This document shows positions 24,541-50,445 of a stretch of 64,000 nucleotides of DNA, piece by piece. The translations under genes and the position numbers were made by a program. Position 1 is the stretch's first letter; each line of letters starts with the position of its first letter. The notes under the pieces were generated by a model. It was not told the origin of the DNA. It searched no databases and saw only the letters and a list, made by a program, of their open reading frames with translations. This DNA is from an uncultured Bacteroidota bacterium (lineage in GTDB: Bacteria > Bacteroidota > Bacteroidia > Bacteroidales > WCHB1-69): the NCBI GenBank assembly GCA_902786595.1, contig CADADB010000005.1, positions 1 to 64,000 on the forward strand. Reading direction: 5' to 3'.

Positions 24541-24628
24541 ACATACCCGCATAAGCCGTCCCTGCAAGAAGGTAGATTGGATGAAAGACTCCTCCTTAAA
24601 AGTTTGCGAGAGCGGTTTGTGTGTGTGT

Positions 24629-24911
24629 GCTCTGGCGTGCAGGAGGTTCCGCTCAACGCTGGCGCGTCTCGCGGAATGGTGCAACGCGCTCGGGAAAGAA
24701 AAGGGAAAAGGCGGGCGGCGTCCGGAACAGATCCGGCAACGGCAACATCCTCCCCGCCGCCCGCCTTTTCCCCTTACCCGGTCCGGCGGCGCGCACCATT
24801 CCGTTTGGCCAGACTGCTATGACGAAAAGGAATGGCATTAACAGAAAACACCGTGCTGGCGGGGAAAGGAGGGGTTTGCGGGCCAAACGGAATCTTTGGC
24901 TCGCGAGGGCG
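24629..24911. mobile_element. GC-rich inverted-repeat element, copy 1 (MITE-like)
   Basis: About 283 bp, strongly similar to 49780-50066 and 50545-50833. Inner complementary arms are GGCGGGCGGCG / CGCCGCCCGCC and CGGAATGGTGC / GCACCATTCCG. The outer ends are GC-rich imperfect inverted repeats; this copy's left end is the most diverged. No transposase is encoded. It lies about 75 bp upstream of the first mcrB promoter. ORFs running through it in all frames are artefacts of its composition. Confidence 0.75.
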
Positions 24912-24984
24912 TACAAAGGCAAAAACAACCCTTCTGCCGGTTCAAAACAGCCAAAAAGTTTGTGTTGGACGTACAATATTTTCG

Positions 24985-25088
24985 TAACTTTGCCGCGTCA
25001 TTCTTTCCCGACTCTGCTTAAAGGGACTTCGGCAGAGAGAGGGGGAAATGGTGCCGGAAAGAGTTGTATAGAAGTCCGTATAAGTATT
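24985..25088 (+). promoter_or_regulatory. Promoter and pseudoknot leader A of mcrB (locus 1)
   Basis: The -7 box TAACTTTG (24985-24992) is followed by GCCGCGTCAT and a leader with two interleaved stems. Stem 1 is TCTTTCC (25002-25008) with GGAAAGA (25056-25062). Stem 2 is GGACTTC (25024-25030) with GAAGTCC (25071-25077). Interleaving makes an H-type pseudoknot. The second stem ends 11 nt before the mcrB ATG, where ribosomes would load. Three other copies in this island keep both stems with different sequences. Confidence 0.72.
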
Positions 25089-27173
25089 ATGGAACCAAAC
25101 GATCAAAAATTATTATTTGACAAACTGTGTGACCTTTATAAAAACACTAAAACAAGTGATGAACCATTTACATTTTGGACGACAAACAAAGGAGGAAAAG
25201 CATTGTTTAATCAAGGGGCCGATTATCTTAATGTTGGGATAGTTAAGATTACAAGTAATAGTCATTTGCAACTTGCTGGATTTAGTTTTAACCCTAATTC
25301 TTTTACAGAAGTGAAATTAAGTGTCGAAAATCGTCTAGATGATATTCAAGGTCTAATAAATAAAGCTAATAAAATCCATAAACCACTGACTGACATACAA
25401 ATAAAATCCTTTCTAAAAGATATTTCAAGTAAATATAGCAGTTGGAAGTATTCCACAACTGTAATAGATGATAATTTGATAAAAGAATTGGAAAAAGAAT
25501 ATGAGAGTTTCTTTACATACATAAAGAGTTACGATGCTAAAAATAGTACTTGTTTTTATGAGATTTTAAAGATTGATGCCGATACGTGTGATAAGAAAAT
25601 GGAGATAACAAATGAAAAAATAAAAAAATGGATTTCAGAAGGGAAAATAGAAGGACAAACGCAGGATGATGAAGACAAAACCACAAAAAATGATAAGGGT
25701 CGAACCAAAAATGGCGATGATTCAAAAGACAAAGGGATGAGCCACTCTCATCCTCTCAACCTCATCCTCTACGGCCCTCCAGGCACGGGAAAGACATATA
25801 ACACATTGTTTCATGCGCTTAAAATTATAAAAGGAGATTCGTATGTGGCGGGTAAAACATACGAGGATTTGAAACCTGATTACGACAAATTAGTGGATTC
25901 TGGCCAAATCGTGTTCACCACCTTCCACCAGTCGATGAGCTATGAGGATTTCATTGAGGGAATAAAGCCGATACCTGTAAGTGGCAAAGATGAAAAAGAT
26001 AAAATCATTGCTATACACAAAAATGAAAACCCCTCTAGCAAGAATCCTCAGTTTGGAGATGGTGTTACGACTATAACTGATCCAACAAGAATGAAATATG
26101 AGGTTAAGGATGGTATTTTCAAGAAAATGTGTGACCTAATGTTTTTTTTGAAAGATGCAAAAGAACAGAAGATTTTGTTTAATTTAAAAGGTGGTGGCTA
26201 TTTCACGATTACATCTATTGATAAAGAAGGTAATAAAATACAGTGCTATAACAGTAGGAATCGTAAATGTAAAGATGTTGTAATTAACTACGACGAGTTG
26301 GTCAAACTAGTGAGTTCGGATATTGAAATAAAAGATGTTTTTGATGTTACAAAATTTTTCGGCAGGAAAACTGGTCTTCAAGAGGATTCTTACCTCTATT
26401 CGATATTAAATAAGTTTAAAGAAAAGAAAGTCCTCATCATCGACGAAATCAACCGTGGCAATGTGGCGCAGATTTTTGGAGAGCTGATTACGCTGATTGA
26501 GCCAAGCAAGCGTTTGGGTAATGATGAGGCAATGACAGCGATCCTGCCATATTCCCAAGAACCTTTCGGTGTCCCCAACAACCTCTACATCATCGGCACG
26601 ATGAACACCGCCGACCGCAGCGTGGAAGCCCTTGACACCGCCCTCCGCCGTCGCTTCTCTTTTGAGGAGATGATGCCGAAACTGGAACTGCTTAAAGACG
26701 ATAAAAATCAAGATATAAAGGTTTGCGGAGTTGAACTCAGCAATTTGCTTAAAACCATCAACAAGCGCATCGTTGCCCTTAAAGATCGCGAACACCAGAT
26801 TGGACATAGCTGTTTTATGGGACTGAAAACTGATTCAGACCTCAAGGATGTCTTCAAAGACAAAATCATCCCGCTGCTGCAGGAATACTTCTATGGTGAC
26901 TACAAGAAGATTTATTATGTGTTAGGACCTGGTTTTGTTGAGAAAAAAACTGAAAAAACTATTTTTGCTGTAGAGAATCCCGATTATGATGAGTTTGATA
27001 TTCCCGAAGAACGATACGACATTGTTTCTTTTGATGCCACATTCAACATTAAGGATGCAATTGAGAAAATGAAAGTGCAAAAATTGGATAGCGGGACTGG
27101 CGCAATGAGCACAGAAACTGCAAAAATAGAAACGGACGTGACAGCAGAATCAAAAGAATCAACGGATAAATAG
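25089..27173 (+). CDS. mcrB: McrB-type AAA+ GTPase of a McrBC restriction system (locus 1)
   Basis: GTP-driven motor of a modification-dependent restriction system; with McrC it cuts DNA carrying modified cytosines. About 694 residues: a variable N-terminal recognition domain (about 1-215), Walker [10 protein letters not shown] (about 229-237), the McrB/dynein-like VFTTFHQSMSYEDFIEG, Walker B VLIIDEINRGNVAQIFGEL (about 446-464), and the family signature IGTMNTADRSVEALDTALRRRF. The start at 25089 follows the leader; an upstream in-frame extension would translate the repeat element and is rejected. The N-terminal part is AT-rich compared with neighbours. McrC follows 2 bp later. Confidence 0.9.
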   Translation: MEPNDQKLLFDKLCDLYKNTKTSDEPFTFWTTNKGGKALFNQGADYLNVGIVKITSNSHLQLAGFSFNPNSFTEVKLSVENRLDDIQGLINKANKIHKPLTDIQIKSFLKDISSKYSSWKYSTTVIDDNLIKELEKEYESFFTYIKSYDAKNSTCFYEILKIDADTCDKKMEITNEKIKKWISEGKIEGQTQDDEDKTTKNDKGRTKNGDDSKDKGMSHSHPLNLILYGPPGTGKTYNTLFHALKIIKGDSYVAGKTYEDLKPDYDKLVDSGQIVFTTFHQSMSYEDFIEGIKPIPVSGKDEKDKIIAIHKNENPSSKNPQFGDGVTTITDPTRMKYEVKDGIFKKMCDLMFFLKDAKEQKILFNLKGGGYFTITSIDKEGNKIQCYNSRNRKCKDVVINYDELVKLVSSDIEIKDVFDVTKFFGRKTGLQEDSYLYSILNKFKEKKVLIIDEINRGNVAQIFGELITLIEPSKRLGNDEAMTAILPYSQEPFGVPNNLYIIGTMNTADRSVEALDTALRRRFSFEEMMPKLELLKDDKNQDIKVCGVELSNLLKTINKRIVALKDREHQIGHSCFMGLKTDSDLKDVFKDKIIPLLQEYFYGDYKKIYYVLGPGFVEKKTEKTIFAVENPDYDEFDIPEERYDIVSFDATFNIKDAIEKMKVQKLDSGTGAMSTETAKIETDVTAESKESTDK

Positions 27174-27175
27174 TA

Positions 27176-28564
27176 ATGATTTCCTCTATCTATAAATTCG
27201 AGCACGAGTTCCTTGCCGTTGAAGAAGATGGTTTTTCTGAGCATCATTTCAAGTTGCTGGCGAAGTACTTGGAAAAGCAGAAAAAGTCGTACCTTTTTGA
27301 AACATCTTACAGGAAAAACGAGATAGGCATCAAATTCAACTCATACGTGGGTGTCATCACCGTGAAAGACCTCACCATCTATGTGTTGCCCAAAGCCGAC
27401 AAGGACGCGGAGGATGCCGAAGGTGATAAAACACTTTGGCAACATCGTCTTACCTTTATGCTTTCGCAGGTGTATAAGCTCAAGGTGCAGACCACTGCTC
27501 CCGCCAATCTAAAATGGCGTCCCAATGTGCTGCTCAACATCTTTCTTAAAAAGTTCCTCGATGAGGTGGCCGTGTTGCTCAACCGTGGCCTCATCAAGAC
27601 CTACCGCAAAACCGACGGTAACCGTACCGCCCTGAAAGGCAAACTGCTGTTCAACAAACAGATTGCATACAACTGCGTGCATCAGGAACGCTTCTATGTG
27701 CGCTACACCACCTACGACTATAACCACATTCTCAACCGCATCATCCGGCAGGCACTGCTGGCTATTTGCGACATCACCAACAGCTCCGACATCAAGGGGC
27801 GTGCAACCTCGACCTTGTTCAACTTCCCCGAACTGGACGAGATAGCCGTCACGCCCGAACTCTTCTCCCGTCTCATCTTCGACCGCAAGAGCGAGGACTA
27901 CCGCAATGTCATCAAGCTGTCGGAGATGATCCTGCTCAACTACTCGCCCGACCTGCACCACGGCAACAACCATGTCTGGACTCTGATGTTCGACATGAAC
28001 AAACTGTGGGAAGAGTTTGTTTTCGTTACGCTTCGACGGAAATTGACGGATTATCATGTAGAAGAGCAAGATCCAAGAGCTTTCTGGAAACGAACAGACC
28101 CCAACAGGTCCAAGACAAAAACAGTCAGAGCCGATATTGTAATCTCTAACGAAAAAGGACGCTTTGTGCTGGATACAAAGTGGAAAACCCCATACGACAA
28201 AGATTCAAGTGGGACGGTGGATATTTCTGATGCGGATTTGCACCAGATGTATGTCTATAGCCACATATACAAAAAGGATAAAGGGAAAAATAGCGAAGAA
28301 AAAGAGGTGAAAAGAGTTGCATTGCTTTATCCTCGTTGTCATGATACGGACGAAGACATTACCGGTGCGTTTGTGGACAATAATAATGCAGGTTGTGATA
28401 TGATTTTCCTGCCTGGAGTATCGGGAAAATCGGAATCCAGGCCAGTCGAGTTACAAAACAATGATGAACGGAAGATGGATTGGCAAAAATGCAGAGATTG
28501 GCAAAATCAAATCGTTGCCCATATTAAGGATTGGATAGAGAAATACAATCAATCAACCTTATAA
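27176..28564 (+). CDS. mcrC: McrC-type nuclease subunit (locus 1)
   Basis: A 462-residue endonuclease partner of McrB. The N-terminal half has the McrC fold (FNSYVGVITVKDLTIYVLPKAD). The nuclease domain has RADIVISNEKGRFVLDTKWK (about 318-337), the PD-(D/E)XK core. It starts 2 bp after the mcrB stop, so the two are translated together. It shares clear local similarity with the mcrC at 45888 (for example FYVRYTTYDY against FYVRHTTYDY, and RKSEDYR). A decayed small gene follows 2 bp after its stop. Confidence 0.9.
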   Translation: MISSIYKFEHEFLAVEEDGFSEHHFKLLAKYLEKQKKSYLFETSYRKNEIGIKFNSYVGVITVKDLTIYVLPKADKDAEDAEGDKTLWQHRLTFMLSQVYKLKVQTTAPANLKWRPNVLLNIFLKKFLDEVAVLLNRGLIKTYRKTDGNRTALKGKLLFNKQIAYNCVHQERFYVRYTTYDYNHILNRIIRQALLAICDITNSSDIKGRATSTLFNFPELDEIAVTPELFSRLIFDRKSEDYRNVIKLSEMILLNYSPDLHHGNNHVWTLMFDMNKLWEEFVFVTLRRKLTDYHVEEQDPRAFWKRTDPNRSKTKTVRADIVISNEKGRFVLDTKWKTPYDKDSSGTVDISDADLHQMYVYSHIYKKDKGKNSEEKEVKRVALLYPRCHDTDEDITGAFVDNNNAGCDMIFLPGVSGKSESRPVELQNNDERKMDWQKCRDWQNQIVAHIKDWIEKYNQSTL

Positions 28565-28566
28565 TT

Positions 28567-28786
28567 ATGGCAAAAAAATAGGAATAGAGAGCAAACAAAA
28601 CGCATCGGTCGGAATGGGTGACATAAAAGATTTTAACCCCAAGAAATCGAAAACCGATACCGTCTGGAGCCAGCTCATCGAGACCGATTACAACCGCGAC
28701 AGTCAAGTCAGCATTATGGTTTTCGATGTGAGATTGACGAGTCAAAGCGCTTGATTGAAGTGGAAGTCAAAGATACATACAAATAG
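28567..28786 (+). pseudogene. Small gene broken by two frameshifts
   Basis: The frame opens MAKK and stops at once after a run of seven A. Shifted by one base it continues KIGIESKQNASVGMGD, then DFNPKKSKTDTVWSQLIETD, to about 28725. A second shift near 28728 leads to DESKRLIEVEVKDTYK and a stop. Joined, this gives roughly 72 residues, so a real small gene appears to have been lost, or the sequence has two errors. The family is not recognised. It sits directly behind mcrC. Confidence 0.5.
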
Positions 28787-28799
28787 TTACACTCGCGAA

Positions 28800-29068
28800 A
28801 ACAGCCCGATCAGGGCTGAAAGCTCGGTAGCCGGGCACGGAGGCATTGTCGTTTCCCGCAGGATGGTCCGGGTCGCGATGTTCGCGGCGCGGGGGAAATT
28901 TCCGGGCGAGGGGATCGGGTGGTTCGCCGCGAAACGGGGAGATGTTCCGGACGGGCGTGCGAGAGGGATTGAAGCCCGACGGCGCGTAGGAGGCGACGTT
29001 TCTAACGTTGCCGTAAAAATCACTGACGCTTGGAAGCGTTGGCTTCTTTGCGACGCTTGGAAGCGTCG
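28800..29068. repeat. GC-rich region with several hairpins
   Basis: No convincing gene. It contains perfect or near-perfect hairpins: CAGCCC/GGGCTG (28802-28818), an arm pair around GGCGACGTT...AACGTTGCC (28992-29012), and twin GACGCTTGGAAGCGT hairpins (29025-29040 and 29051-29068). Composition is far more GC-rich than the flanking genes. It may be another repeat family or a structured RNA; it is not the same element as the 285-bp repeat. Confidence 0.5.
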
Positions 29069-29080
29069 GCTCCGAAGCTT

Positions 29081-29127
29081 TGCTATTAGCAAAATTACAG
29101 ACAACCCCCATATTAATTGTATTTTCG
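29081..29127 (+). promoter_or_regulatory. Island operator plus promoter before the 29.2 kb gene
   Basis: TGCTATTAGCA (29081-29091), a perfect TGCTA-N-TAGCA dyad, then 28 bp, then TATTTTCG (29120-29127), a -7 box with one change from TAnnTTTG. This is the only copy that has both the operator and the pseudoknot leader. Confidence 0.7.
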
Positions 29128-29130
29128 CGC

Positions 29131-29222
29131 CGTCATATCTTCCGAAGCTGTCTTATGGAGCCTCGCAGGGTCTGAAGGTGTGACGAGGAAGAGTTGTAAC
29201 AGAGGCTCCCGATAGAGAAAAG
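29131..29222 (+). promoter_or_regulatory. Pseudoknot leader B
   Basis: Begins CGTCAT like the other copies. Stem 1 is TCTTCC (29138-29143) with GGAAGA (29187-29192). Stem 2 is GGAGCCTC (29157-29164) with GAGGCTCC (29202-29209), ending 13 nt before the ATG. Between them lies the conserved phrase CTCGCAGGG shared with leader C. Compared with leader A, three base pairs of stem 2 are changed on both sides. Confidence 0.72.
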
Positions 29223-29954
29223 ATGACTGTTTTGCAAAAACCGAATGCGACGGTAGGACAGATCGTGAAAGATCTGGAACAGATTGTTGAGAAGAATCCG
29301 GGCATTTTCCTGGAGTACTGTTACGATGGCGAAGATATGTACGTGGAAGGCATCAAACTGCGCAAGGACATTGCCATATTGGAAACCACCGGCAAGAAGA
29401 AGCGCGCGGCCACGGCGGAAGACCTCCTGGCGATGTTTCGCTTGCTTGACGTTTCACTCGGAGTGGTGATACAAGAAGGTTGGGAAATGCTGAACTTCGA
29501 GCCATACAAAAACGGCGCCATCTTCAAGTACGACGAAGAGGAGGATTTTTGCTTCTTTAAGATGGACAGAGATGTGCGACTCCTCACCACCCAACAGATT
29601 GAGGCCGAATTGAAAAAGGTTGATAAGGAAGGATTCCTCAATTTCAAGGTGGTGCCCCAATTGTGGCACGGTAATAAGTTGACTGTGTATCGTGCGAATA
29701 GTCTGTGGTATGACTATGGAAAACTCTTCCTGTGCTACGATGAAGACAATGAATCGGACAGCATCACAGTAGGCGAGCTTTTGGAAGAATTTCCTGATTG
29801 TGCCGAGTTTATGGTACGAGTAAACGGGAAGTTTTATACTGTCAAAGTGGATGAAAATGGACGCTTCTTCAGTTTCCCGAAGTTAGTTTCAGCTGGTGTG
29901 ACATTATTTGCCATCCACCTGGGCGAGATGGTGTTTGACCCGAATGAGATGTAG
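29223..29954 (+). CDS. Hypothetical protein, 243 residues
   Basis: Not recognised. An acidic soluble protein with no signal peptide or membrane segment. It begins MTVLQKPNATVGQIVKDLEQIV and has repeated short beta-rich segments with Tyr/Asp/Glu (YCYDGEDMYVEGIKL, FKYDEEEDFCFFKMD, LFLCYDEDNESD). It is controlled by both the TGCTA-N-TAGCA operator and pseudoknot leader B, and is probably the first gene of a run through 30023 and 30819. Its regulation ties it to the restriction genes, but I cannot assign an activity. Confidence 0.72.
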   Translation: MTVLQKPNATVGQIVKDLEQIVEKNPGIFLEYCYDGEDMYVEGIKLRKDIAILETTGKKKRAATAEDLLAMFRLLDVSLGVVIQEGWEMLNFEPYKNGAIFKYDEEEDFCFFKMDRDVRLLTTQQIEAELKKVDKEGFLNFKVVPQLWHGNKLTVYRANSLWYDYGKLFLCYDEDNESDSITVGELLEEFPDCAEFMVRVNGKFYTVKVDENGRFFSFPKLVSAGVTLFAIHLGEMVFDPNEM

Positions 29955-30022
29955 TGAAATGGAATGACAATAAAAAAACGAAGCGACGAAAGGGTAGGAT
30001 ATAACAACAAAAAATAATTATT

Positions 30023-30835
30023 ATGGATAATAAAATTCACAAGTACGAATTGTACACAGCAGACTTCTATGAAAGCGAGACTTCAACGATCTATAAACAT
30101 ATCGCATATGCCGATACGTTTGAAGAGGCCATCGAGATCCTTGTAAAAAAACAGGATTGCCATCGAAGCGATCCAAAAGAGTATAATAAGATTGTAAACG
30201 AGATTCGTTCACATTCCGAATCTGAACTTAAAGGTTGCGAGGAAATATGCCTTTATGGTGGGTGCTGCTATTACCACGAATATCTGCGTAAAGTCCCGGG
30301 TTATGTGGATGAGAATGAGATGGTCGCAAAAGATGTGACCTTGGGAGAGATTCTTAAACGCGAACTGGCTAATGTCAAGGACCTTAAGTGGGAAATGAGA
30401 GTCGATACAAAAAACAAGGAAGATTTTTATCTGCAGGTCAGAGGTTGCAATAAAGTGCCGGTGGGCAATAAATACGAGCGCATTGTCGGCTTGCCGACGC
30501 ACTATGTGGATTATCATTATCGGGTGGGATCGGATACTGTCAAAGAATATATTTCAGAAAAGACATTTCCTGATGTGGAATGGGAAACGGTTTCTGTGGA
30601 AGAGATTGACAGACGTTTGAAAGAATTTTTCCTTTCTCGCAAAATATACTACTCCGTTGAAGAAGCCTTCAACAGTCTGCCGAATGAGCTGGTGTTGAAC
30701 CTGGGTTCGGGGGGATCCATCACGCCATACGACAAGTATGGTTATCAGATAGTGAACATCAGCGCATACGGTACTGCAGGCGACAAAGGAGTGTTTGTCC
30801 ATATAAGAAGATGTGGTGATGGAATACAGTCTTGA
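30023..30835 (+). CDS. Hypothetical protein, 270 residues
   Basis: Not recognised. A soluble protein with a Cys-rich patch (CEEICLYGGCCYYHEYL, about 74-90) and a C-terminal part VLNLGSGGSITPYDKYGYQIVNISAYG. It lies 68 bp after the 29223 gene and overlaps the 30819 metallopeptidase-like gene by 17 bp, so it is probably translated with it. No RBS of note. Confidence 0.68.
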   Translation: MDNKIHKYELYTADFYESETSTIYKHIAYADTFEEAIEILVKKQDCHRSDPKEYNKIVNEIRSHSESELKGCEEICLYGGCCYYHEYLRKVPGYVDENEMVAKDVTLGEILKRELANVKDLKWEMRVDTKNKEDFYLQVRGCNKVPVGNKYERIVGLPTHYVDYHYRVGSDTVKEYISEKTFPDVEWETVSVEEIDRRLKEFFLSRKIYYSVEEAFNSLPNELVLNLGSGGSITPYDKYGYQIVNISAYGTAGDKGVFVHIRRCGDGIQS

Positions 30836-31667
30836 TGAAAAGTTCACCCCTCGTGACCTGACCCCGGAGGAAAAGACTTTCTTGAACGCCTTGGTCACCT
30901 ATACCATGCCTTTGGAAAAGTCGCTGTTTTTCCAGATTGCCGATCTTCAGCAGCACACCAAATTAGAGTTCAGTGTGAATGGCGGTCGTTTTAAGGGTTC
31001 CGAATTCCCCGAACGTGAGGTACTCGAAAAGGAACTTAACGAACTGGCAATAATGCTGGATGGTTTTCGGGAAAAGCTGTGGGATGATAGATTACCGGAA
31101 GAGAACTGGGATTTGTACGAGATATGGGAAGAAGAGTGGGTGAGACAGAACGAGAAGCTGAAGGAATTGTTGGACAATCCTGAGAAGAGGGTGGATTCGA
31201 CGCCTATGGGTGTATATTACAATAGAGGCTGGGATTCCAAGGTGGTCCTTTTTGTGGACGCCATCGAGAAGCGTGCCAAGCACAATCCGTATGACACGAT
31301 GCTCCTGATGGGGATGGTCCTGCTACACGAATATTTCCATTCCTTCCATTTCCATGCGGGGACCGGCGCGGGTGATCCACCGAAATGTATTGAAGAACCG
31401 ATGGCCGACTACGGTAGTCTGGTAATGTTGGACAGAGTGGCGTCATCGGGGTTGCCCATCGCCAAAGATGCAGGGAATGCGCTGGAAAAAGCGTTGGACT
31501 TTGTCAAGAGCAAACAACTGCGCACGATGGATACCGCCGGCTATGGATTTGGCGCCTGCCTTTACGAGAATCACAAAAAAGAGGCCTCAAATCTGATAGC
31601 CCTGTACGCCAATGTGTCCTGTTTGATGAATGATAAAACCTTAAAAAAAGACAATAATTTCTCGTAA
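30819..31667 (+). CDS. Putative HExxH metallopeptidase with EEPMA motif
   Basis: About 282 residues. LLHEYFHSFHFH (about 167-178) has the zinc-binding HExxH motif, and about 20 residues later comes CIEEPMADYGSLVM, whose Glu could be the third zinc ligand, as in gluzincins. The protein at 33225 has the same pair (LVHETMHAYF then FVEEPMAEFGMLL), so the two are related. No signal peptide, so it would act in the cytosol. The ATG at 30819 is preferred over the GTG at 30813; either overlaps the previous gene. RmuC follows 24 bp later. The substrate is unknown. Confidence 0.7.
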   Translation: MEYSLDEKFTPRDLTPEEKTFLNALVTYTMPLEKSLFFQIADLQQHTKLEFSVNGGRFKGSEFPEREVLEKELNELAIMLDGFREKLWDDRLPEENWDLYEIWEEEWVRQNEKLKELLDNPEKRVDSTPMGVYYNRGWDSKVVLFVDAIEKRAKHNPYDTMLLMGMVLLHEYFHSFHFHAGTGAGDPPKCIEEPMADYGSLVMLDRVASSGLPIAKDAGNALEKALDFVKSKQLRTMDTAGYGFGACLYENHKKEASNLIALYANVSCLMNDKTLKKDNNFS

Positions 31668-31691
31668 GAAAATCTTAAACACATTAATAAT

Positions 31692-33041
31692 ATGAATCTT
31701 ACTGTAATTTTTATTGCAATTGTCGTTGTCGCAATAGTTGTCGTTGCAACGATCATCGTTATCTATAAAAAAAGTGGATTTTCCGGAGATAGCAAATCTC
31801 AGGAAGTAAAAGATACGCTGACACGAACACAGGCGCAGCTAGAGTCTAAACAACAGGAGTTGGATCGTGTTTATGAAGAAAACCGAGAACTTCATAGACA
31901 GATGGATGATTTGACTCGCAAACTGGGCAATTCAGAGGCCAATGCACAAGGCAAAGAAGAAGAGCTGAAAGAACGTATGCAAAGTATGGACGTGTGGTAC
32001 AATAAAATGCAAGTCGAGTTCGGCGAGATTGCAAAGAAGTTGATGGACGAGAAAGAAAGTGGTTTTGAGAAAAGGAACTCCGAAGTGTTGGAACCTCTAC
32101 GGGAGTCGTTGAAGGAAATGCAAGAAGAGTTGAGGAAAACCAAAGAGCAAGTGAATGTTGATCTCAATACACAGATTTCCACGCTGAAAGACATGAATAG
32201 AGAGCTTTGTAATGAAACCAGCCATCTCGCCAATGTCTTCAAAGGGGGCAATGGCGTACAAGGGAAATGGGGTGAGTCACAATTGGCACGTGTGCTGGAG
32301 ATTGCCGGCATACCGGAAGGTGAGATGGGCTACACCATGCAGGTCTCTGCACAGAACTCAAAATCTGCTCAAGACCGTCCTGACTGCATAGTACACCTGC
32401 CGGGCAACAAATGTATCATTATTGATGCTAAAACCAACCTGACAGCCTACGAGCGTAGCTTTCATGCAGCCAGTGAAGAGGAACGTGTAAATTGTCTCAA
32501 AGAGCATGCCAACGCCGTAAAAGCCCAAATTACAAATCTTTCGAAAAAACAGTATCAAGAGAACAAAGAGTACAATAATCCCGGTTTTGTTCTGATGTTC
32601 TCACCTGTAGAGTCGGCGATGACGGCAGCACAGCAATACTCCGATGTTGATCTTTTTCAATATGCGGCAGATAGGAATATCTCAATAGTAACTCCTTGGA
32701 ATCTTATCCCTATCTTGTTTGTTGTGCGCAACATCTGGAAGACGGAACAGCAGGAACGGAATGTCTCGAAAATAGCAAAACGCGGACGTCTGATATACGA
32801 CAAAATATACCAGATTCTAACAAAGGTGGATAATATCAATAAAAATATTGGTGCAGTCCAAAAGGAATGCCAGCAACTCAGCAAAGATCTTGGAAACAAA
32901 GATGGCGGGCTGATGCAACAGGCAAGACAATTGGAGGAACTTGGCATAAAACCGATATCAACAAACAAAGGCGAAAATAAGATAGAAAACACTACTGTGT
33001 ATAAGGATTATTATGAAGGTGATGATGGTGATGTCGAGTAA
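31692..33041 (+). CDS. rmuC: RmuC-family DNA recombination protein
   Basis: A 449-residue protein with an N-terminal membrane anchor (about 2-25), a long coiled coil (about 35-165) and the RmuC domain. The domain contains GGNGVQGKWGESQLARVLE (about 185-203) and DCIVHLPGNKCIIIDAKTN (about 234-252), a PD-(D/E)XK-like nuclease core. RmuC limits inversion at short inverted repeats, which is notable in a region so full of them. Near-normal length. It follows the metallopeptidase-like gene by 24 bp. Confidence 0.92.
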   Translation: MNLTVIFIAIVVVAIVVVATIIVIYKKSGFSGDSKSQEVKDTLTRTQAQLESKQQELDRVYEENRELHRQMDDLTRKLGNSEANAQGKEEELKERMQSMDVWYNKMQVEFGEIAKKLMDEKESGFEKRNSEVLEPLRESLKEMQEELRKTKEQVNVDLNTQISTLKDMNRELCNETSHLANVFKGGNGVQGKWGESQLARVLEIAGIPEGEMGYTMQVSAQNSKSAQDRPDCIVHLPGNKCIIIDAKTNLTAYERSFHAASEEERVNCLKEHANAVKAQITNLSKKQYQENKEYNNPGFVLMFSPVESAMTAAQQYSDVDLFQYAADRNISIVTPWNLIPILFVVRNIWKTEQQERNVSKIAKRGRLIYDKIYQILTKVDNINKNIGAVQKECQQLSKDLGNKDGGLMQQARQLEELGIKPISTNKGENKIENTTVYKDYYEGDDGDVE

Positions 33042-33110
33042 GATATTCGGGTAAAATCACTTATTGTCAATTAAATAGTTGTGAGATCTCCAACATATAA
33101 ATAAAGTTGT

Positions 33111-33224
33111 TATTTTTGCAACGTCATATTTTCAGATTCTGTTTAACGGACCTCGCAGGGGCTGCGGAGTGGCGGGAAAATAAGTGCTAATAATGAAGGT
33201 CCACTATAACGTAAAAACCTCGCG
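33111..33224 (+). promoter_or_regulatory. Promoter and pseudoknot leader C
   Basis: The -7 box TATTTTTG (33111-33118) is followed by CAACGTCAT. Stem 1 is TATTTTC (33127-33133) with GAAAATA (33176-33182). Stem 2 is GGACCT (33148-33153) with AGGTCC (33197-33202), ending 22 nt before the ATG. It shares TGTTTAACGG with leader D and CTCGCAGGG with leader B. No TGCTA-N-TAGCA site lies at the usual distance. Confidence 0.72.
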
Positions 33225-34646
33225 ATGTATAGGGAATCGACAACAAGTATGGGTGCATTAAAAAGAATTACCGATGAATATTTCGGTAAATTATTGAGAA
33301 AAGAAGATTGGTTGGTGTTGTTGCCAAGAAAAGAAGAAGATATTGATATCATTGACGACTATGATCTTCTAAATAAATGTCTATCTGAAGATATGTCTGG
33401 GTATTTGAGAAGAATTCTCCAAGAGGTTGTTTCATTAGATTTTACTTTTGGTGGATACACGTCGCTCGCAGATGTGTTAAACTCGTTGAACGTAAAAGTA
33501 CATATTTGTGAAGGAATTAAAGAATATAACTCGTCAGACAAATATGAGTTTGTTGAAAAGGCTAAGAAGCATTGGGAACAAGAATTTTTTGACCGTCCAG
33601 ATTTACTTAATTCAATGTTGGAAAGGATAACAAAAGAAAACGCATGGATAAATTCAGCACGTATTCGTGGACGTTATCTGCCAGAAGAGAATGTCATAGA
33701 ACTTTATCCTGAAGAGATGATGGAAGAGGCAGGGATGAGAAGAGGAAGGATTGATTATTTAATACTTACCACCTTAGTTCACGAGACTATGCATGCCTAT
33801 TTTGACAGACCAGACCACTCGATGTTTCCATACGCTTATTTTGTGGAAGAACCTATGGCCGAATTCGGAATGTTACTATTCTTTAAAGAAACGTCGCAAG
33901 AAGCGTGTGATTATCAATCCTTGCGACAATGGGCTTATGATGATGTAAAAGGTAAGTCTTCCTGTTATCGTTATGGTGTATCTCTTTTTGATCAATATTG
34001 CGATTGGAACAAATCTCTCCGCAGTTATTTGGAGGCTTATAAATATGGTATCTCAGAATTTGGAATGTTGGATATCGATATTGATGAAAAGCATGTCGCT
34101 TTGCCTTATCCAATATGTGAAAAGGACATTACAGAATATCATAAATCGTATGATAGCAAACACCCATCTATGGTTACCATTAATAAAGTAGAAAACGAGA
34201 TTAAAGGACTGGGGTTCGATATCAATCGCGGGAAAATAATGGACTCGCTTTGGGAACAGATTGAGCACAGATACAAGGAAAAGGAACCAACAGACGAAGA
34301 ACTTACAAACATAATGATTTGGCTCGGTATAAACTTTAAAGATGATTTCAACATGGTCGAATGTGAATTCATAAACCAATTAAAATACATCTTCAAAAAT
34401 TACGGTTTTTGGGATTTTCACAAATTTGGACTCACTTTCTGGGCGGCTTTCCCAGAAAAAGACTGCGAAAGTTTGTATAACCACGAAGGCCTTATAAAAG
34501 TGCTTTCCGACAAAAACCACGGACATTCCGAGTTCTACCTTAAAGAGGGTGAGACCATTGAAAGTGCAGTAAAGGCAATCGCTTCCGAATACTTCCCTTG
34601 GAGAATCAAAGAAGATAAGATTGTGCCTATAACGGAAAAAGAATAA
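33225..34646 (+). CDS. Putative HExxH metallopeptidase, larger paralogue
   Basis: A 473-residue protein. It has TLVHETMHAYFDRPDHS (HExxH, about 186-202) then VEEPMAEFGMLLFF (about 206-219), the same motif pair as the 30819 protein. The spacing is shorter here. Residues 330-473 form a further domain (FINQLKYIFKNYGFWDFHKFG, then ESLYNHEGLIKVLSDK...HSEFYLKEGETIESAVK) that reads like a small viral-type or repair accessory domain, not recognised. No signal peptide. It is translated from pseudoknot leader C, like the restriction genes. Function is inferred only from the motif. Confidence 0.7.
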   Translation: MYRESTTSMGALKRITDEYFGKLLRKEDWLVLLPRKEEDIDIIDDYDLLNKCLSEDMSGYLRRILQEVVSLDFTFGGYTSLADVLNSLNVKVHICEGIKEYNSSDKYEFVEKAKKHWEQEFFDRPDLLNSMLERITKENAWINSARIRGRYLPEENVIELYPEEMMEEAGMRRGRIDYLILTTLVHETMHAYFDRPDHSMFPYAYFVEEPMAEFGMLLFFKETSQEACDYQSLRQWAYDDVKGKSSCYRYGVSLFDQYCDWNKSLRSYLEAYKYGISEFGMLDIDIDEKHVALPYPICEKDITEYHKSYDSKHPSMVTINKVENEIKGLGFDINRGKIMDSLWEQIEHRYKEKEPTDEELTNIMIWLGINFKDDFNMVECEFINQLKYIFKNYGFWDFHKFGLTFWAAFPEKDCESLYNHEGLIKVLSDKNHGHSEFYLKEGETIESAVKAIASEYFPWRIKEDKIVPITEKE

Positions 34647-45887: not shown

Positions 45888-47234
45888 TTATATGTGTATT
45901 TTAATAAAATCTCCCCAATGAGGATTTTTGTTGCAGTTCTCATCTTCACATGTTTTACAATTGTTTTCGCAATTGTCAATTGACAGAAACATCATTGAAC
46001 ATTTCCAAGAGGATTTTCCTCCTTTCTCATCGAAAAAAGTTCCCTCTAAATAGTTGCTTTGAGTAAATGATTTTATTTCAGGATATATCAGTATCGTGTG
46101 TTTCACATCCTTAAACAAAGAATGGTCAACATACATTTGCTTCAAGTCGGAATCACTTGGAGTGTTTCCTGGAATTTTCCATTTCGTGTCGAAAACGAAT
46201 GTGCTTGTCTTGGATTCACACACAATATCCGGACGAATGGTTCTTTTCTGGTGACTCAAATCCAATTCCCAGAATGGTTTTGACTGCTGCCGAGTTAAAT
46301 GATATCCATCCTTTCTCATCTGGGTGCGTAAACATTCAAACACATACTCCTCCCATAAAGCGTTCATATCAAACATTAAAGCAAATACTTGTTCTTCTTC
46401 CCCTTGGTTGTTTCCAACAGAAAAATTAAGAAGAATCATTTTGGCTAGATTAATTGCCTCTCGATAATCTTCGCTCTTTCGCGAATATTGAATCTCATGG
46501 AATGTATCATCTGTGATCTCAATATCATCAAACTTTGGGAAAAAACACAATAACTCTCTGGACTTATTGCATAATATGCCGTTGGTAGTTATATTAATTA
46601 TTTTCTGAAGAGCGAGGTAGAGAATTTGATTGTGAATATTCCTGTAATCGTATGTGGTATGTCTAACATAGAACGACTCCAGGTGGCAGGCATTTTTAGA
46701 GAATTGCTTTTGAAACAGCAACTTACCAGAAAGAGCTTTGCTATTCTCTTCTGTTTGATTGTATTGCTTCGTCAACCCTCGATTAACCAGAACCTCAACT
46801 TCATCTATAAATTTGTATAAATAAATATCTAAAATCGGATTCTTTGAAAGGTGTTGAATAGCGGATCCTGTCCAATTGATTTTGAGACGCAATGCCTTTT
46901 CAAGCATCTTGATAAGGTTATTCTGCCAAATGCTTTCTTGCTCGTCATTCTTCACATATCTTTCACCATAGTTTAAATCATCTCTGTCTGCTTTTGGAAG
47001 AATATTAATTTGAACATTTCCAACAGATAACACGCCCACGTAATTATTGAATTTAATGCCTTTGTTTACCAAACTATAGAAAGGACATTTTCTTCCGGTC
47101 CCATAATTCTTAACCAATGCAGAAAACAACTTCTTTCCATTTATGCTATTAAACTCCTCAATCTCCTTTTCGGTAAGAATTTGGTGCTCATAGCGTGTAA
47201 TGATTCTAATCAGTTGTATTTCTTGAACCGTCAT
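45888..47234 (-). CDS. mcrC: McrC-type nuclease subunit (locus 2)
   Basis: A 448-residue nuclease partner of the McrB at 47239. FNNYVGVLSVGNVQINILPKAD (about 61-82), FYVRHTTYDYRNI, RKSEDYREAINL and the nuclease core RPDIVCESKTSTFVFDTKWK (about 335-354) match the mcrC at 27176, but overall divergence is high. The C-terminus has an unusual Cys cluster (CENNCKTCEDENCNKN, about 423-438) that could bind metal. It starts 4 bp after mcrB. Confidence 0.9.
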   Translation of the reverse strand: MTVQEIQLIRIITRYEHQILTEKEIEEFNSINGKKLFSALVKNYGTGRKCPFYSLVNKGIKFNNYVGVLSVGNVQINILPKADRDDLNYGERYVKNDEQESIWQNNLIKMLEKALRLKINWTGSAIQHLSKNPILDIYLYKFIDEVEVLVNRGLTKQYNQTEENSKALSGKLLFQKQFSKNACHLESFYVRHTTYDYRNIHNQILYLALQKIINITTNGILCNKSRELLCFFPKFDDIEITDDTFHEIQYSRKSEDYREAINLAKMILLNFSVGNNQGEEEQVFALMFDMNALWEEYVFECLRTQMRKDGYHLTRQQSKPFWELDLSHQKRTIRPDIVCESKTSTFVFDTKWKIPGNTPSDSDLKQMYVDHSLFKDVKHTILIYPEIKSFTQSNYLEGTFFDEKGGKSSWKCSMMFLSIDNCENNCKTCEDENCNKNPHWGDFIKIHI

Positions 47235-47238
47235 AAGT

Positions 47239-49635
47239 TTAGCTTTGAGGATGTTTAAAACTATAGTATTGATTGTATATATATCTCCCTAGTAATTTGG
47301 TTATTGCCTCGATGAATGTGTCCTTGTTAAAAACAGAATCTTTATAAAAATCATCTTCAGGTACAATTATCCAGTTTTTCTTGTCCGTGAAATCGTCATC
47401 GTATGAATCATCACACACAGCCATACTCATTTTGGAATTTTTGTCTGGTTTGACAAATCCATTTCCTATAACTTTTGCAATGAGATCATACCTGTTAAAG
47501 AAGTATTCTTGAAGTAGCGGGATGATTTGTCGATAGAAAACATCTTTTAGTTTTTCCCATTTATTCTCATCATCCTTAATATTCATAAAATAGGAATGCC
47601 CGATCTGATGGTCACGGTCCTTTAACACGCGTAGTCTTGCATTAATTGTGTCAAAGATGTCCCGCAATTTTATTGCTATCTTATTGTTTTCGTCTCCAAC
47701 ATTTTCTTCCCAATCTGGGACACACTTGGAGTCAGGCATCATCTCTTCAAAAACAAATCTTCTCCGCAAGGCGCTATCCAACGCTTCAACACTCCTGTCT
47801 GCAGTATTCATTGTTCCAATAATGTACAAATTATCGGGCACTCCGAATTCTTCATGACTATAGGGTAGTTTTGCTGTCAGTGCATTCAATCTTCCCAATC
47901 GTTTACTGTCCTCAATTAAAGTGATTAATTCACCGAAAATACTGGCAATATTACCTCTATTGATTTCGTCAATAATCAGCACATAGGGTGTGGTGGATTT
48001 TTTTCTGCGCACAAAATTCCTATAATCAACAACAAGACGAGGTAGCCAGGTGTTATATATCGAATTGTCATAATTACCCGGGGACTGAAGTTCTTTCTTG
48101 AATGCAGAAAAAGGAACATTGTTTGTGGGTGTTACGGCGAACTTGGATTGATTGATTTTAATTGAATCCCCTGATTGTAGTTCGTAAGATTTATTCTTGC
48201 TAATTTCTTCTTTAATCAATGTTATATAATCATCAAAAAACAGATCTCTGATGTTTTGTAAACGGGCCGTTTCGTAGCATTTTTTTTGCAAATTGCCCTT
48301 GTATGAATGTATTGTTTCCATTATACTATTTAATGTGTCTTCCTCAAATGCGCCTGTCGTTTTAATTTTTTGTATATCTTTTTCTTCAGGCTGCTTCTTG
48401 TTTTCACACATCAAATATTGGACCAGTGAAAGCACCTGTTTTTTTAGTTGATCATCTGTTGAACGGTAGTCCTCTTTCCTTTTTTCTTGACAAAAACACT
48501 CGCAAAGATAATCCAAAAGAGCCTTGTCACAGATTTCCTTAAAAATTCCTGGTTGAACGTTATATGAGATAAGATTTGTTTTTTCCGATTCTGCTGATTT
48601 TTCGTAAACCACCGTGGATGTAGGTTTCCCATGTTCATCAGCCTCCACATCATTTGCAGATGGAAAGTCCTGAGCTACTGCTGTATGTATATGGTTACTT
48701 GTATTGTCAGTTGATATTATGGATGGCTTGATACCTTCTATAAAATCTTCATAGCTCATCGACTGGTGGAAGGTGGTGAAAACAATCTGACCAGATTTAA
48801 CATATTGGTTATACAATGTAATTGCATGCTCCCTTAAGTCCCCCTCGTCTGTTTTCCCAGATTCTTCTTTCCATAGTGGATTAATGATATCCAATGCCTT
48901 TTCAATAGAAATATAGGTTTTTCCAGTGCCGGGAGGCCCAAATAATATTTGATTTAATGGTTGCTCTTTACGAGAGAGTATTGCGGCCTCGCGTTTAATG
49001 GTCTTTTCTCTTTGAATTTCATTCTTTGCATTTTCAAAAATATCCTCTCTGAAACCATTGACAAATTTTTCTTGAACTTTTGATTTTATGTCCTCCTCAT
49101 TTTTGCCGTTTTTTTGTGGCTTATAAGACAAATCCCTGATACACTTCTTATAACGGTTTTTATATAGTCTTTTTAAATGACTTAGTGCTTCTGAAAAAAC
49201 ACTTTCGTCAAATTTGTCTTTGAGTTGATCTCGTATCGTTTTCTGAAGATCGTCGTCTGAATTTCCCGATCTAAAAGGTGTTTCGATTTCTTCACGGTAT
49301 TTTGATATGACTTGTCTATGTGTTTTAGCCAGTGCTATTCCATATGTATCCTCGTTGAAACCTTTTCCTAATTTATTTTGGACGCTTTTTTTGCGGCCTT
49401 CTTCAACACCTTGATATTCTTCTATGCATTTTGTATGTTCTATGCATTCGTCACTTCCCTCAATTTTCATAGTTTCATCCACTTTTTTCCACGCAGTGTC
49501 AAATATTGCAGAATTAACTTCACCATATATTTCCTGTAAATTCTTCTTGTAAAAATCTTTCCTCTTTCCTGAATCTTTGTCTTTCAACAAAAGGATCTCA
49601 GTGCAGTATGATTCGATTAGTTGTTCATTTTCCAT
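47239..49635 (-). CDS. mcrB: McrB-type AAA+ GTPase (locus 2), repeat-containing N-terminus
   Basis: A 798-residue motor of the second McrBC system. Residues about 25-200 hold about four loosely repeated helical units with the pattern 'F.E..F..A' (YGEVNSAIFDTAWK, FNEDTYGIALAK, FDESVFSEALSHL, FREDIFENAK), unlike locus 1, so target recognition probably differs. Then Walker [10 protein letters not shown] (about 231-239), VFTTFHQSMSYEDFIEG, Walker B VLIIDEINRGNIASIFGEL (about 551-569) and IGTMNTADRSVEALDSALRRRF. It begins just after pseudoknot leader D. Confidence 0.9.
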   Translation of the reverse strand: MENEQLIESYCTEILLLKDKDSGKRKDFYKKNLQEIYGEVNSAIFDTAWKKVDETMKIEGSDECIEHTKCIEEYQGVEEGRKKSVQNKLGKGFNEDTYGIALAKTHRQVISKYREEIETPFRSGNSDDDLQKTIRDQLKDKFDESVFSEALSHLKRLYKNRYKKCIRDLSYKPQKNGKNEEDIKSKVQEKFVNGFREDIFENAKNEIQREKTIKREAAILSRKEQPLNQILFGPPGTGKTYISIEKALDIINPLWKEESGKTDEGDLREHAITLYNQYVKSGQIVFTTFHQSMSYEDFIEGIKPSIISTDNTSNHIHTAVAQDFPSANDVEADEHGKPTSTVVYEKSAESEKTNLISYNVQPGIFKEICDKALLDYLCECFCQEKRKEDYRSTDDQLKKQVLSLVQYLMCENKKQPEEKDIQKIKTTGAFEEDTLNSIMETIHSYKGNLQKKCYETARLQNIRDLFFDDYITLIKEEISKNKSYELQSGDSIKINQSKFAVTPTNNVPFSAFKKELQSPGNYDNSIYNTWLPRLVVDYRNFVRRKKSTTPYVLIIDEINRGNIASIFGELITLIEDSKRLGRLNALTAKLPYSHEEFGVPDNLYIIGTMNTADRSVEALDSALRRRFVFEEMMPDSKCVPDWEENVGDENNKIAIKLRDIFDTINARLRVLKDRDHQIGHSYFMNIKDDENKWEKLKDVFYRQIIPLLQEYFFNRYDLIAKVIGNGFVKPDKNSKMSMAVCDDSYDDDFTDKKNWIIVPEDDFYKDSVFNKDTFIEAITKLLGRYIYNQYYSFKHPQS

Positions 49636-49744
49636 AAGATTTTTCTTTTTTAAGTGGACTCCTATTTTAACTCTCTATTCCCACATCCCACTCCCTGCCG
49701 AAACCCGTTAAACAAGATGTGAGAATATGACGCGGCAAAGTTAC
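49636..49744 (-). promoter_or_regulatory. Promoter and pseudoknot leader D of mcrB (locus 2)
   Basis: On the minus strand: the -7 box TAACTTTG (49744-49737), GCCGCGTCAT, stem 1 TATTCTC (49728-49722) with GGGAATA (49682-49676), extended past a bulge by ACATC/GATGT. Stem 2 is GGGTTTC (49707-49701) with GGAGTCC (49662-49656), using G-U pairs. The second stem ends 20 nt before the ATG. The promoter sequence itself is close to that of leader A. Confidence 0.72.
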
Positions 49745-49779
49745 GAAAAATATGTAACGATTCCGCATTCGTTTTTGCG

Positions 49780-50066
49780 TGCCCTCGCGGGCAGGAGGTT
49801 CCGCTCGACGCTGACGCGTCTTGCGGAATGGTGCATCGCGCTCGGGAAAGAAAAGGGAAAAGACGGGCGGCGGCCGGAACGTCCCCGGCCACGGCACTAT
49901 TCTCCCCGCCGCCCGTCTTTTCCCTTGGTTCGTCCGGCGGCGCGCACCATTCCGTTTGGCCAGACTGCGGTGACGAAGGGCGACGGAATTGGCGGATGTC
50001 ACCGCGCTGACGATAAAAAGAGGAACTGGCCGGCCAAACGGAATCTCCGGCTCGCAAGGGCAGGGG
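49780..50066. mobile_element. GC-rich inverted-repeat element, copy 2 (MITE-like)
   Basis: About 287 bp. The left end is GCCCTCGCGGGCAGGAGG and the right end, read inverted, GCCCTTGCGAGCCGGAGA: imperfect terminal inverted repeats of about 23 bp. Internal arms GGGAAAAGACGGGCGGCGG / CCGCCGCCCGTCTTTTCCC make a near-perfect 19-bp stem. It lies 35 bp from the locus-2 mcrB promoter and 1 bp from the GIY-YIG stop. No flanking target duplication that I can see. Confidence 0.78.
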
Positions 50067-50067
50067 A

Positions 50068-50445
50068 TTACTCGATACGAAAACCTTGGTTTTCCTCTAT
50101 TATCTCGTCAATAACACGCTTTACTTGGTCTGCCCAAGGTGTCGGCTTCTCGCAAAATCCGTTTTCTGTGACTAACTCTTTCCACTCGGGATTTCTTTCG
50201 TTGATGAGTTTGATTTTTTCTGCCCTCTTCATGTTCTTTATCTCATTTTCACGCTGGATTGCAGAGTTGTAATCGGGAAACTCTTCGAAATAAACGCAAT
50301 ACTCGCAGTTGTAACGATCAGAGAAGGAACCTTTGTAATAATGATTCTTGTGTTGTGCCACCCGTTTGACAATGTCAACAGTGCTACCAGTGTATAACAC
50401 GTTGTGGTACTTGTTGGTCATGATATATGCATATCCAGATTTCAT
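50068..50445 (-). CDS. GIY-YIG endonuclease, small stand-alone type
   Basis: A 125-residue protein with the GIY-YIG core YAYIMTNKYHNVLYTGSTVD (about 5-24) and RVAQHK (Arg in the conserved site), then a Glu in RENEIKNMKR. Such small proteins are common in Bacteroidota; the role is uncertain. The ATG at 50445 is used; upstream codons would run into the repeat element at 50545. It is bracketed by element copies 2 and 3 in the same orientation, as if carried between them. Confidence 0.87.
   Translation of the reverse strand: MKSGYAYIMTNKYHNVLYTGSTVDIVKRVAQHKNHYYKGSFSDRYNCEYCVYFEEFPDYNSAIQRENEIKNMKRAEKIKLINERNPEWKELVTENGFCEKPTPWADQVKRVIDEIIEENQGFRIE

What the first reader, a model, noticed from the sequence alone, without database searches (positions are those of the whole stretch)
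24985..25088. A pseudoknotted 5' leader shared by four defence-island transcripts
Leaders A (24985-25088), B (29131-29222), C (33111-33224) and D (49744-49636, minus strand) start with CGTCAT a few bases after the -7 box. All can form two interleaved stems. Stem 1: TCTTTCC/GGAAAGA, TCTTCC/GGAAGA, TATTTTC/GAAAATA, TATTCTC/GGGAATA. Stem 2: GGACTTC/GAAGTCC, GGAGCCTC/GAGGCTCC, GGACCT/AGGTCC, GGGTTTC/GGAGTCC (with wobble). Both sides change together, which is covariation. Loops keep a TGnTTAAnGG-like phrase and a TCG(G)CAGnG phrase. The second stem ends 11-22 nt before the start codon, so folding could hide the ribosome site. Genes served: both mcrB genes, an unknown protein and a putative metallopeptidase. 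I know of no named riboswitch or leader with this layout. An RNA element that coordinates translation of restriction genes would be new. The stems are seen; the regulatory role is inferred.
Basis: partly seen in the sequence, partly recalled or inferred. Interest (0 to 1): 0.92.

Follow-up and report, generated by a model that had tools for sequence, protein, structure and literature searches.

The report
Pseudoknot leader carried by insertion sequences
The four transcripts start with the same folded RNA leader; elsewhere in these rumen bacteria that leader is the outward-reading end of a jumping DNA element, so it looks like a ready-made promoter and 5' leader that can be dropped in front of genes, including but not only phage-defence genes.

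Summary
The four leaders are real and belong to one RNA family with no Rfam match. A covariance model finds it in 39 of 40 genomes of the genus and in five other Bacteroidales families, not convincingly outside the order.

The leader is not defence-specific; two thirds of sampled downstream proteins look secreted. In 23 of 103 copies the upstream DNA matches an IS5-family insertion sequence whose right inverted repeat is the pseudoknot's 3' strand. One intact IS sits between two genes that adjoin, without IS or leader, in two related genomes. Five of eight tested divergent right ends, including Bacteroides IS1168 and IS1169 (known outward promoters of nim genes), show the same layout.

Best reading: these ISs end in an outward promoter plus a pseudoknotted leader that becomes the neighbour's 5' UTR; solo copies, probably including A-D, persist about 15 nt before start codons. 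What the fold does to expression is inferred; IS descent of A-D is unproven.

The parts
24985..24992 (+). -7 promoter box TAACTTTG of leader A, 3 nt before leader base 1
   Evidence: sequence; the TAnnTTTG consensus of B. fragilis is quoted in PMC9330008
24996..25077 (+). Leader A: stem 1 from base 1, pseudoknot strands 25024-25030 (GGACTTC) and 25071-25077 (GAAGTCC)
   Evidence: (E 1.9e-16, own-genome search; A is among the sequences R1 was built from)
25089..27173 (+). mcrB-like AAA+ gene behind leader A (694 aa), followed by mcrC at 27176-28564
   Evidence: Pfam AAA_5 and McrBC; NCBIfam McrB model below its cut-off
29120..29127 (+). -7 box TATTTTCG of leader B
29131..29209 (+). Leader B: 12-bp base of stem 1 CGTCATATCTTC/GAAGGTGTGACG; pseudoknot 29157-29164 (GGAGCCTC) with 29202-29209 (GAGGCTCC), an extra base pair relative to the family
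29223..29954 (+). gene of unknown function behind leader B; leader plus gene start also in two other genomes of the genus (L093, L094)
   Evidence: no family
33111..33118 (+). -7 box TATTTTTG of leader C
33122..33202 (+). Leader C: pseudoknot 33148-33153 (GGACCT) with 33197-33202 (AGGTCC)
33225..34646 (+). gene of unknown function behind leader C (473 aa); leader plus gene start also in G006 (L020)
49736..49743 (-). -7 box TAACTTTG of leader D
49656..49732 (-). Leader D: stem TATTCTCACATC/GATGTGGGAATA; pseudoknot 49706-49700 (GGGTTTC) with 49662-49656 (GGAGTCC)
47239..49635 (-). mcrB-like AAA+ gene behind leader D, followed by mcrC at 45888-47234

Best explanation
The leader is the right-end module of a group of IS5-family insertion sequences of Bacteroidales: an outward-facing promoter (TAnnTTTG) followed at once by a 5' leader RNA that folds as an H-type pseudoknot (5'-terminal G-U-rich hairpin whose apical loop pairs with the RNA of the IS's own right inverted repeat). 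When the IS lands in front of a gene, or its right end is left behind there, the promoter and leader become that gene's promoter and 5' UTR. SHOWN: RNA family, pseudoknot, redrawn stem, IS right-end location, an empty site, persistence next to start codons. INFERRED: A-D descend from such ends whose IS body is lost; transcription starts at leader base 1; the fold shields the 5' end and presents the start-codon region in a fixed context independent of upstream DNA, so expression becomes portable. Whether it also switches (ligand, protein or RNA partner) is open.
For: Distribution: genus 39/40 genomes; order 15/295 at E<=0.001, of which 4 are this genus, 7 look real and 4 doubtful by eye; another family 17/31 at E<=0.01, 13 of them below 1e-8; class 5/395, the four outside this genome only at E 2.8e-4 to 8.1e-4. 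Structure; in stem 1 non-Watson-Crick pairs are G-U far more often than A-C (IS-linked copies 121 vs 1, solo 365 vs 61), a strand-specific sign of RNA, though composition contributes (register ratio 7.8; slides 1.4 to 9.4). IS link: 23 of 103 copies have transposase or IS-body matches upstream; of 30 transposase loci (26 distinct) given all but L207 and L217, whose matches run close to contig ends, carry the leader downstream, 93-138 nt behind the transposase end wherever that end is kept; shared upstream DNA mostly ends at or within about 10 nt of the pseudoknot 3' strand while the next genes differ. Empty site: L292/L247 vs L293 and L299. Divergent ISs: hairpin plus pseudoknot to a different inverted repeat in 5 of 8 right ends of one repeat type, including IS1168 and IS1169 (Fisher p 1.4e-4 pseudoknot, 1.9e-5 hairpin, over all 8, which are not fully independent). 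Solo copies: start codon at median 15 nt, 69/79 within 30 nt; IS-linked 11/20. -7 box in 82/99, at exactly 3 nt in 66.
Against: No IS body or left repeat was found upstream of A-D (pattern check to 3.5 kb; transposase and IS blast to 2.5 kb), so their IS descent rests on the family. 80 of 103 copies are solo; an IS could instead have captured a host leader. Under the strict all-pairs test only one pseudoknot pair is significant. Pseudoknot strand 1 is also an internal copy of the terminal repeat, so DNA-level transposase binding could explain part of that pairing. In one search L249, L251 and L255 gave no significant pseudoknot, nor did three of four ends of the second repeat type. One fetched stretch with IS pieces (L240) has no leader. 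No expression data exist here.
Confidence: 0.62

Rival explanations
1. A host regulon leader: a riboswitch or protein/sRNA-binding 5' UTR that existed first and was later captured by the IS group.
For: Solo copies outnumber IS-linked ones (80 vs 23); leader plus gene pairs are kept across species (B with L093 and L094; C with L020); loop and A-rich linker sequences are conserved.
Against: The same layout occurs at right ends of ISs whose transposases are 48-61% identical to the query and whose inverted repeats differ, with the pseudoknot changed to match; downstream genes share no obvious pathway.
Confidence: 0.15
2. The RNA serves the IS itself, for example as a check on transposase made from abutted IS ends or as a trans-acting RNA; neighbouring genes are bystanders.
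For: Present in divergent ISs; other ISs use end-encoded RNAs (recalled: IS10 RNA-OUT, IS200 art200; PMC9330008's reference list, seen, includes IS10 promoters and an IS30 antisense RNA).
Against: In solo copies without an IS the pseudoknot is kept as well as in IS-linked ones (35 of 545 against 9 of 140 non-standard cells, though the model favours it) and sits at start codons.
Confidence: 0.13
3. Only a DNA feature: subterminal and terminal transposase-binding repeats; the RNA fold is incidental.
For: Pseudoknot strand 1 is a copy of the terminal repeat; in IS-linked copies its deviations do not prefer G-U (6 vs 8 A-C).
Against: Stem 1 is G-U rich (about a quarter of cells) and is no DNA palindrome; different sequences form it in other ISs.
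Confidence: 0.08

Closest known systems
IS1168 and IS1169 of Bacteroides (IS5 family; IS1186 is listed with them in PMC9330008 but was not examined here)
   Same: IS5-family transposase (48% identity to the IS here), outward promoter driving a neighbouring gene (PMC9330008 Table 2), and, seen here, a hairpin whose loop pairs with the right repeat
   Different: Different inverted repeat (GGGTTCT/GAGTTCT type against GGACCTC); the R1 model does not find them; I found no description of a leader structure in the searches listed
IS-encoded RNAs: IS10 RNA-OUT, IS200 art200, IS605/IS607 omegaRNA, IS110 bridge RNA (recalled)
   Same: structured RNA made at an IS end
   Different: those act on transposition or guide a nuclease or recombinase; here the RNA would be the 5' UTR of adjacent host genes and the enzyme is a DDE transposase
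Pseudoknotted leaders such as SAM-II or preQ1 riboswitches (recalled)
   Same: H-type pseudoknot shortly before a start codon
   Different: no Rfam match, no common pathway, carried by an IS

Membership tests
IS5-family insertion sequence right end | DDE transposase of the IS5 group upstream | tested here: met
   For the type copy L040: NF033581 250.5 bits against cut-off 140. For A-D: not met, no IS remains found, so A-D are not filed as IS copies.
IS5-family insertion sequence right end | terminal inverted repeats and an empty site | tested here: met
   Type copy L247: GGGGACCTCTA left, TAGAGGTCCCC right; empty site in L293 and L299. For A-D no left end was found.
MITE (internally deleted IS copy) | both IS ends kept, middle lost, same deletion in several places | tested here: met
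   For copies such as L046 and L061, with the same junctions in two genomes. Not met for A-D.
Known Rfam RNA family | score at or above a family's gathering threshold | tested here: not met
   0 matches in the window and in 8 loci with leader copies or related right ends; only weak, scattered matches
Riboswitch | downstream genes of one pathway | tested here: not met
   varied genes: secreted-type proteins, mcrB, PARG, DNA methylase
Riboswitch | ligand binding changes the fold | not testable with these tools
   needs in-line probing
Defence-gene regulatory leader | occurs mainly before defence genes | tested here: not met
   66 of 99 copies before signal-peptide-like proteins (heuristic)

The most novel reading that the evidence does not exclude
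A self-transposing cis-regulatory RNA: one group of IS5-family elements has evolved to end in a structured 5' leader, so every insertion can put a neighbouring gene under the same post-transcriptional rule; selection has kept many solo copies, so that surface proteins and phage-defence islands of rumen Bacteroidales now share a common, mobile 5' UTR.
Probability: 0.32. Interest if true: 0.9.

Novelty: new variant of a known kind. Interest (0 to 1): 0.74.

Why it matters
Insertion sequences are known to bring promoters. Here an IS group seems also to bring a conserved, folded 5' leader that ends at its terminal repeat and becomes the neighbour's 5' UTR. That would be a mobile unit of post-transcriptional control, with many copies per genome (356 matches at E<=0.1 in 40 genomes, my sum over). 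It also puts a testable structure into transcripts driven by IS1168 and IS1169, cited as outward promoters since the 1990s (reference dates).

Tried and rejected
My first pattern search found nothing because the pattern was wrong. Literature searches that showed no description of this RNA, judged from titles and abstract starts: (two returned no papers); most subscription papers are not in that library. Not examined: the copy on contig C14 of this genome (E 0.011), the Planctomycetales-titled contig, and matches beyond the capped lists.

Full report
1. Observation. The four leaders lie where stated and each begins CGTCAT 3 nt after a TAnnTTTG-like -7 box. The window has no Rfam hit at gathering scores; 24900-33400 has five matches at E up to 10, all far below their cut-offs and none on leaders A-C. 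A pattern from the four copies found relatives in the same genus among chance matches. From 14 copies (A-D and ten others) I built a covariance model, R1, that contains only the pseudoknot pairs, so that any other stem could be tested without bias. It finds the element in 39 of 40 genomes of the genus, 356 matches in all at E<=0.1 per genome (my sum over the table; the listing of places is capped); G022, 98% complete, has none. This genome has 11 (15 at E<=1). At E<=0.001, 15 of 295 sampled genomes of the order have it: 4 are this genus, 7 look real by eye, in five other families (f3, f81, f101, f4, f30), and 4 are doubtful. In the family of G119, 17 of 31 match at E<=0.01, 13 of them below 1e-8. 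In the class sample 5 of 395 match, and the four outside this genome reach only E 2.8e-4 to 8.1e-4; one of them, L261, can pair GGACTTT with AAAGTCC but has no -7 box before it, and I saw no pseudoknot in the others. Exact matches to one pattern in named genomes were 40 stretches; the titles are almost all uncultured Bacteroidales or Bacteroidetes MAGs, many from rumen; one is titled Planctomycetales and was not examined.

2. Structure. On the 101 distinct rows of A3 (105 aligned) the pseudoknot stem is 93.7% paired. The alternative, a hairpin from base 1 (CGTCATATTTTCAG.ATTCTG / CAGGGT.CTGGAGGTGTGGCG), is 86.5% paired against 39-54% for slid versions, with both-sided changes in 13 of 20 pairs (slid versions 8-16) and a covariation score of 0.311 (slid 0.094-0.151). 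The layout is: 5' strand of the hairpin, loop TTTAAC, pseudoknot strand 1 (GGACCTC), one G, 3' strand of the hairpin, A-rich linker, pseudoknot strand 2 (GAGGTCC), start codon. In my own R-scape-like test (substitutions re-dealt along a FastTree tree) one pseudoknot pair is significant (E=0 in 40 and in 200 nulls). No stem-1 pair reaches E<0.05 over all pairs (best 0.4), nor in the wider alignment counting only the 27 proposed pairs (best 0.12); as a set the proposed pairs rank above the rest (Mann-Whitney p 1.4e-7). In 38 rows mostly from other families (two, L178 and L179, are in fact this genus) stem 1 is 83.0% paired, its upper part 74.2%, and the pseudoknot 97.7%; R1 favours the latter. 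B has an extra, compensated base pair in the pseudoknot (GGAGCCTC/GAGGCTCC).

3. What it sits on. Comparing copies with their flanks, shared DNA often runs hundreds of bases upstream but mostly ends at or within about 10 nt of the pseudoknot's 3' strand, where unrelated genes begin; 28 of 1998 overlapping pairs do continue into the gene. The upstream DNA codes for an IS5-family transposase (Pfam DDE_Tnp_1; NCBIfam NF033581). The intact IS (L247) is 1457 bp from GGGGACCTCTA to TAGAGGTCCCC; the right repeat is the pseudoknot's 3' strand. A 3-bp TTA duplication with one more repeat base on each side is my reading of the flanks. Among 67 transposase match rows in the genus only one is full length without a stop; most are internally deleted, several with the same junctions. 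Of the 30 loci returned (26 distinct) all but L207 and L217 have the leader downstream, 93-138 nt behind the transposase end where that end is kept; in L212 and L225 it is deleted. L207 and L217 lie 13 and 161 bases from a contig end. Of 20 further stretches fetched, 17 have a leader; L233 and L234 run into contig ends and L240 has IS pieces but no leader. Conversely 23 of 103 leader copies have IS or transposase matches upstream (two rows of A3, an antisense and a partial match, were dropped before this and later counts). One of the 23, L061:3255, counts only because its upstream stretch contains the neighbouring IS copy; three others, L047, L068 and L074, match only left-end pieces of the IS.

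4. Empty site. In G011 the intact IS lies between a gene ending ...KIKWYNS and gene P0001. In G005 (L293) the relatives of the same two genes (P0001 70% identical) are neighbours with no IS and no leader; G060 (L299) has the same arrangement, its gene broken. The right-flank match resumes directly after the right repeat, at TTTATATCTTTGC; on the left the match is good to about 35 nt from the IS and ragged beyond. There the IS landed just upstream of what looks like the native -7 box. So at this locus the leader came with the IS.

5. Other ISs. At right ends of divergent IS5 elements I tested, by shuffles, complementarity to the element's own right repeat and a hairpin around it. Five of eight of one repeat type (L248, L250, L258, IS1168 = L265, IS1169 = L264) show a pseudoknot at p 0.004-0.044 with 11-21 enclosing pairs (hairpin p 0.005-0.08). 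L249 has a hairpin (p 0.040) but no pseudoknot hit, and L251 and L255 gave nothing significant. Of four of a second type, L252 has p 0.032 for a short pairing without an enclosing hairpin and three gave no significant pseudoknot. L248 and L258, and IS1168 and IS1169, resemble each other, so the combined p-values overstate independence; the right ends and anchor strings were chosen by me. IS1168 and IS1169 appear in PMC9330008 Table 2 as IS-borne outward promoters for nimA/nimB and nimD, and IS1186 for cfiA (passages and table seen; three primary papers I asked for are not held).

6. Position and genes. 82 of 99 distinct copies have a -7 box within 24 nt, in 66 exactly 3 nt before base 1. The chosen start codon (longest nearby ORF, favouring ATG and closeness) is at median 15 nt in solo copies (69 of 79 within 30 nt) and 27 nt in IS-linked ones (11 of 20). 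66 of 99 downstream proteins look signal-peptide bearing by a simple hydrophobicity rule, no baseline computed. In this genome two other strong copies precede a lipoprotein-like gene and a 173-aa protein; four weaker ones lie in a second cluster before PARG-domain proteins (two), a DUF4919 protein and an N6/N4 DNA methylase; the methylase copy sits behind an IS relic.

7. Mechanism. Shown: a mobile outward end carrying promoter-like sequence and a conserved RNA fold that coincides with the terminal repeat; persistence beside start codons without the IS. Inferred: the transcript starts at base 1, the fold forms, and it sets 5'-end stability and the context of initiation. Retention of the pseudoknot in solo copies (35 of 545 non-standard cells against 9 of 140 in IS-linked ones), where it can no longer serve as a repeat, argues for an RNA role, with the caveat that R1 favours it; stem 1 is more eroded in solo copies (235 of 1546 against 25 of 393). 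IS descent of A-D is inferred: no IS body was found near them.

8. Novelty. No match in Rfam 15. Nine literature searches returned nothing that describes it, judged from titles and abstract starts, over open-licence papers only. IS outward promoters are known; a conserved structured leader as part of them is, as far as I could check, new.

Noticed in passing
L246:3617-16012 (this genome, contig C3): A second cluster with four weaker leader copies before PARG-domain (two), DUF4919 and DNA methylase genes, with NADAR and HNH genes nearby; possibly another defence island.
   Followed up: partly
L031:1501-1670: Two leaders of different subtype in tandem before one gene (second match partial); L030 has a closely related gene with only the first found.
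   Followed up: no
L204, L200/L125 and relatives: A second leader subtype (CGTTGTTTGCTTATCTTGATG...) at the right end of ISs whose transposases are about 82-93% identical to the type; R1 scores it weakly.
   Followed up: partly
window 24600-24960 and 49750-50100: Inverted repeats (CCGTTTGGCCAGACTG... with ...GGCCAAACGG) and other G+C-rich repeats upstream of leaders A and D, partly shared with L008; no match to the IS here.
   Followed up: no
window 31692-33041: RmuC-family gene with a strong PADLOC match to RTasRmuC of DRT systems (3.6e-70), between leaders B and C.
   Followed up: no
G006 contig C12 (L008, L094, L020): An island in another species with three leaders at 333, 4307 and 7545 before relatives of the window's genes behind A, B and C.
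   Followed up: partly
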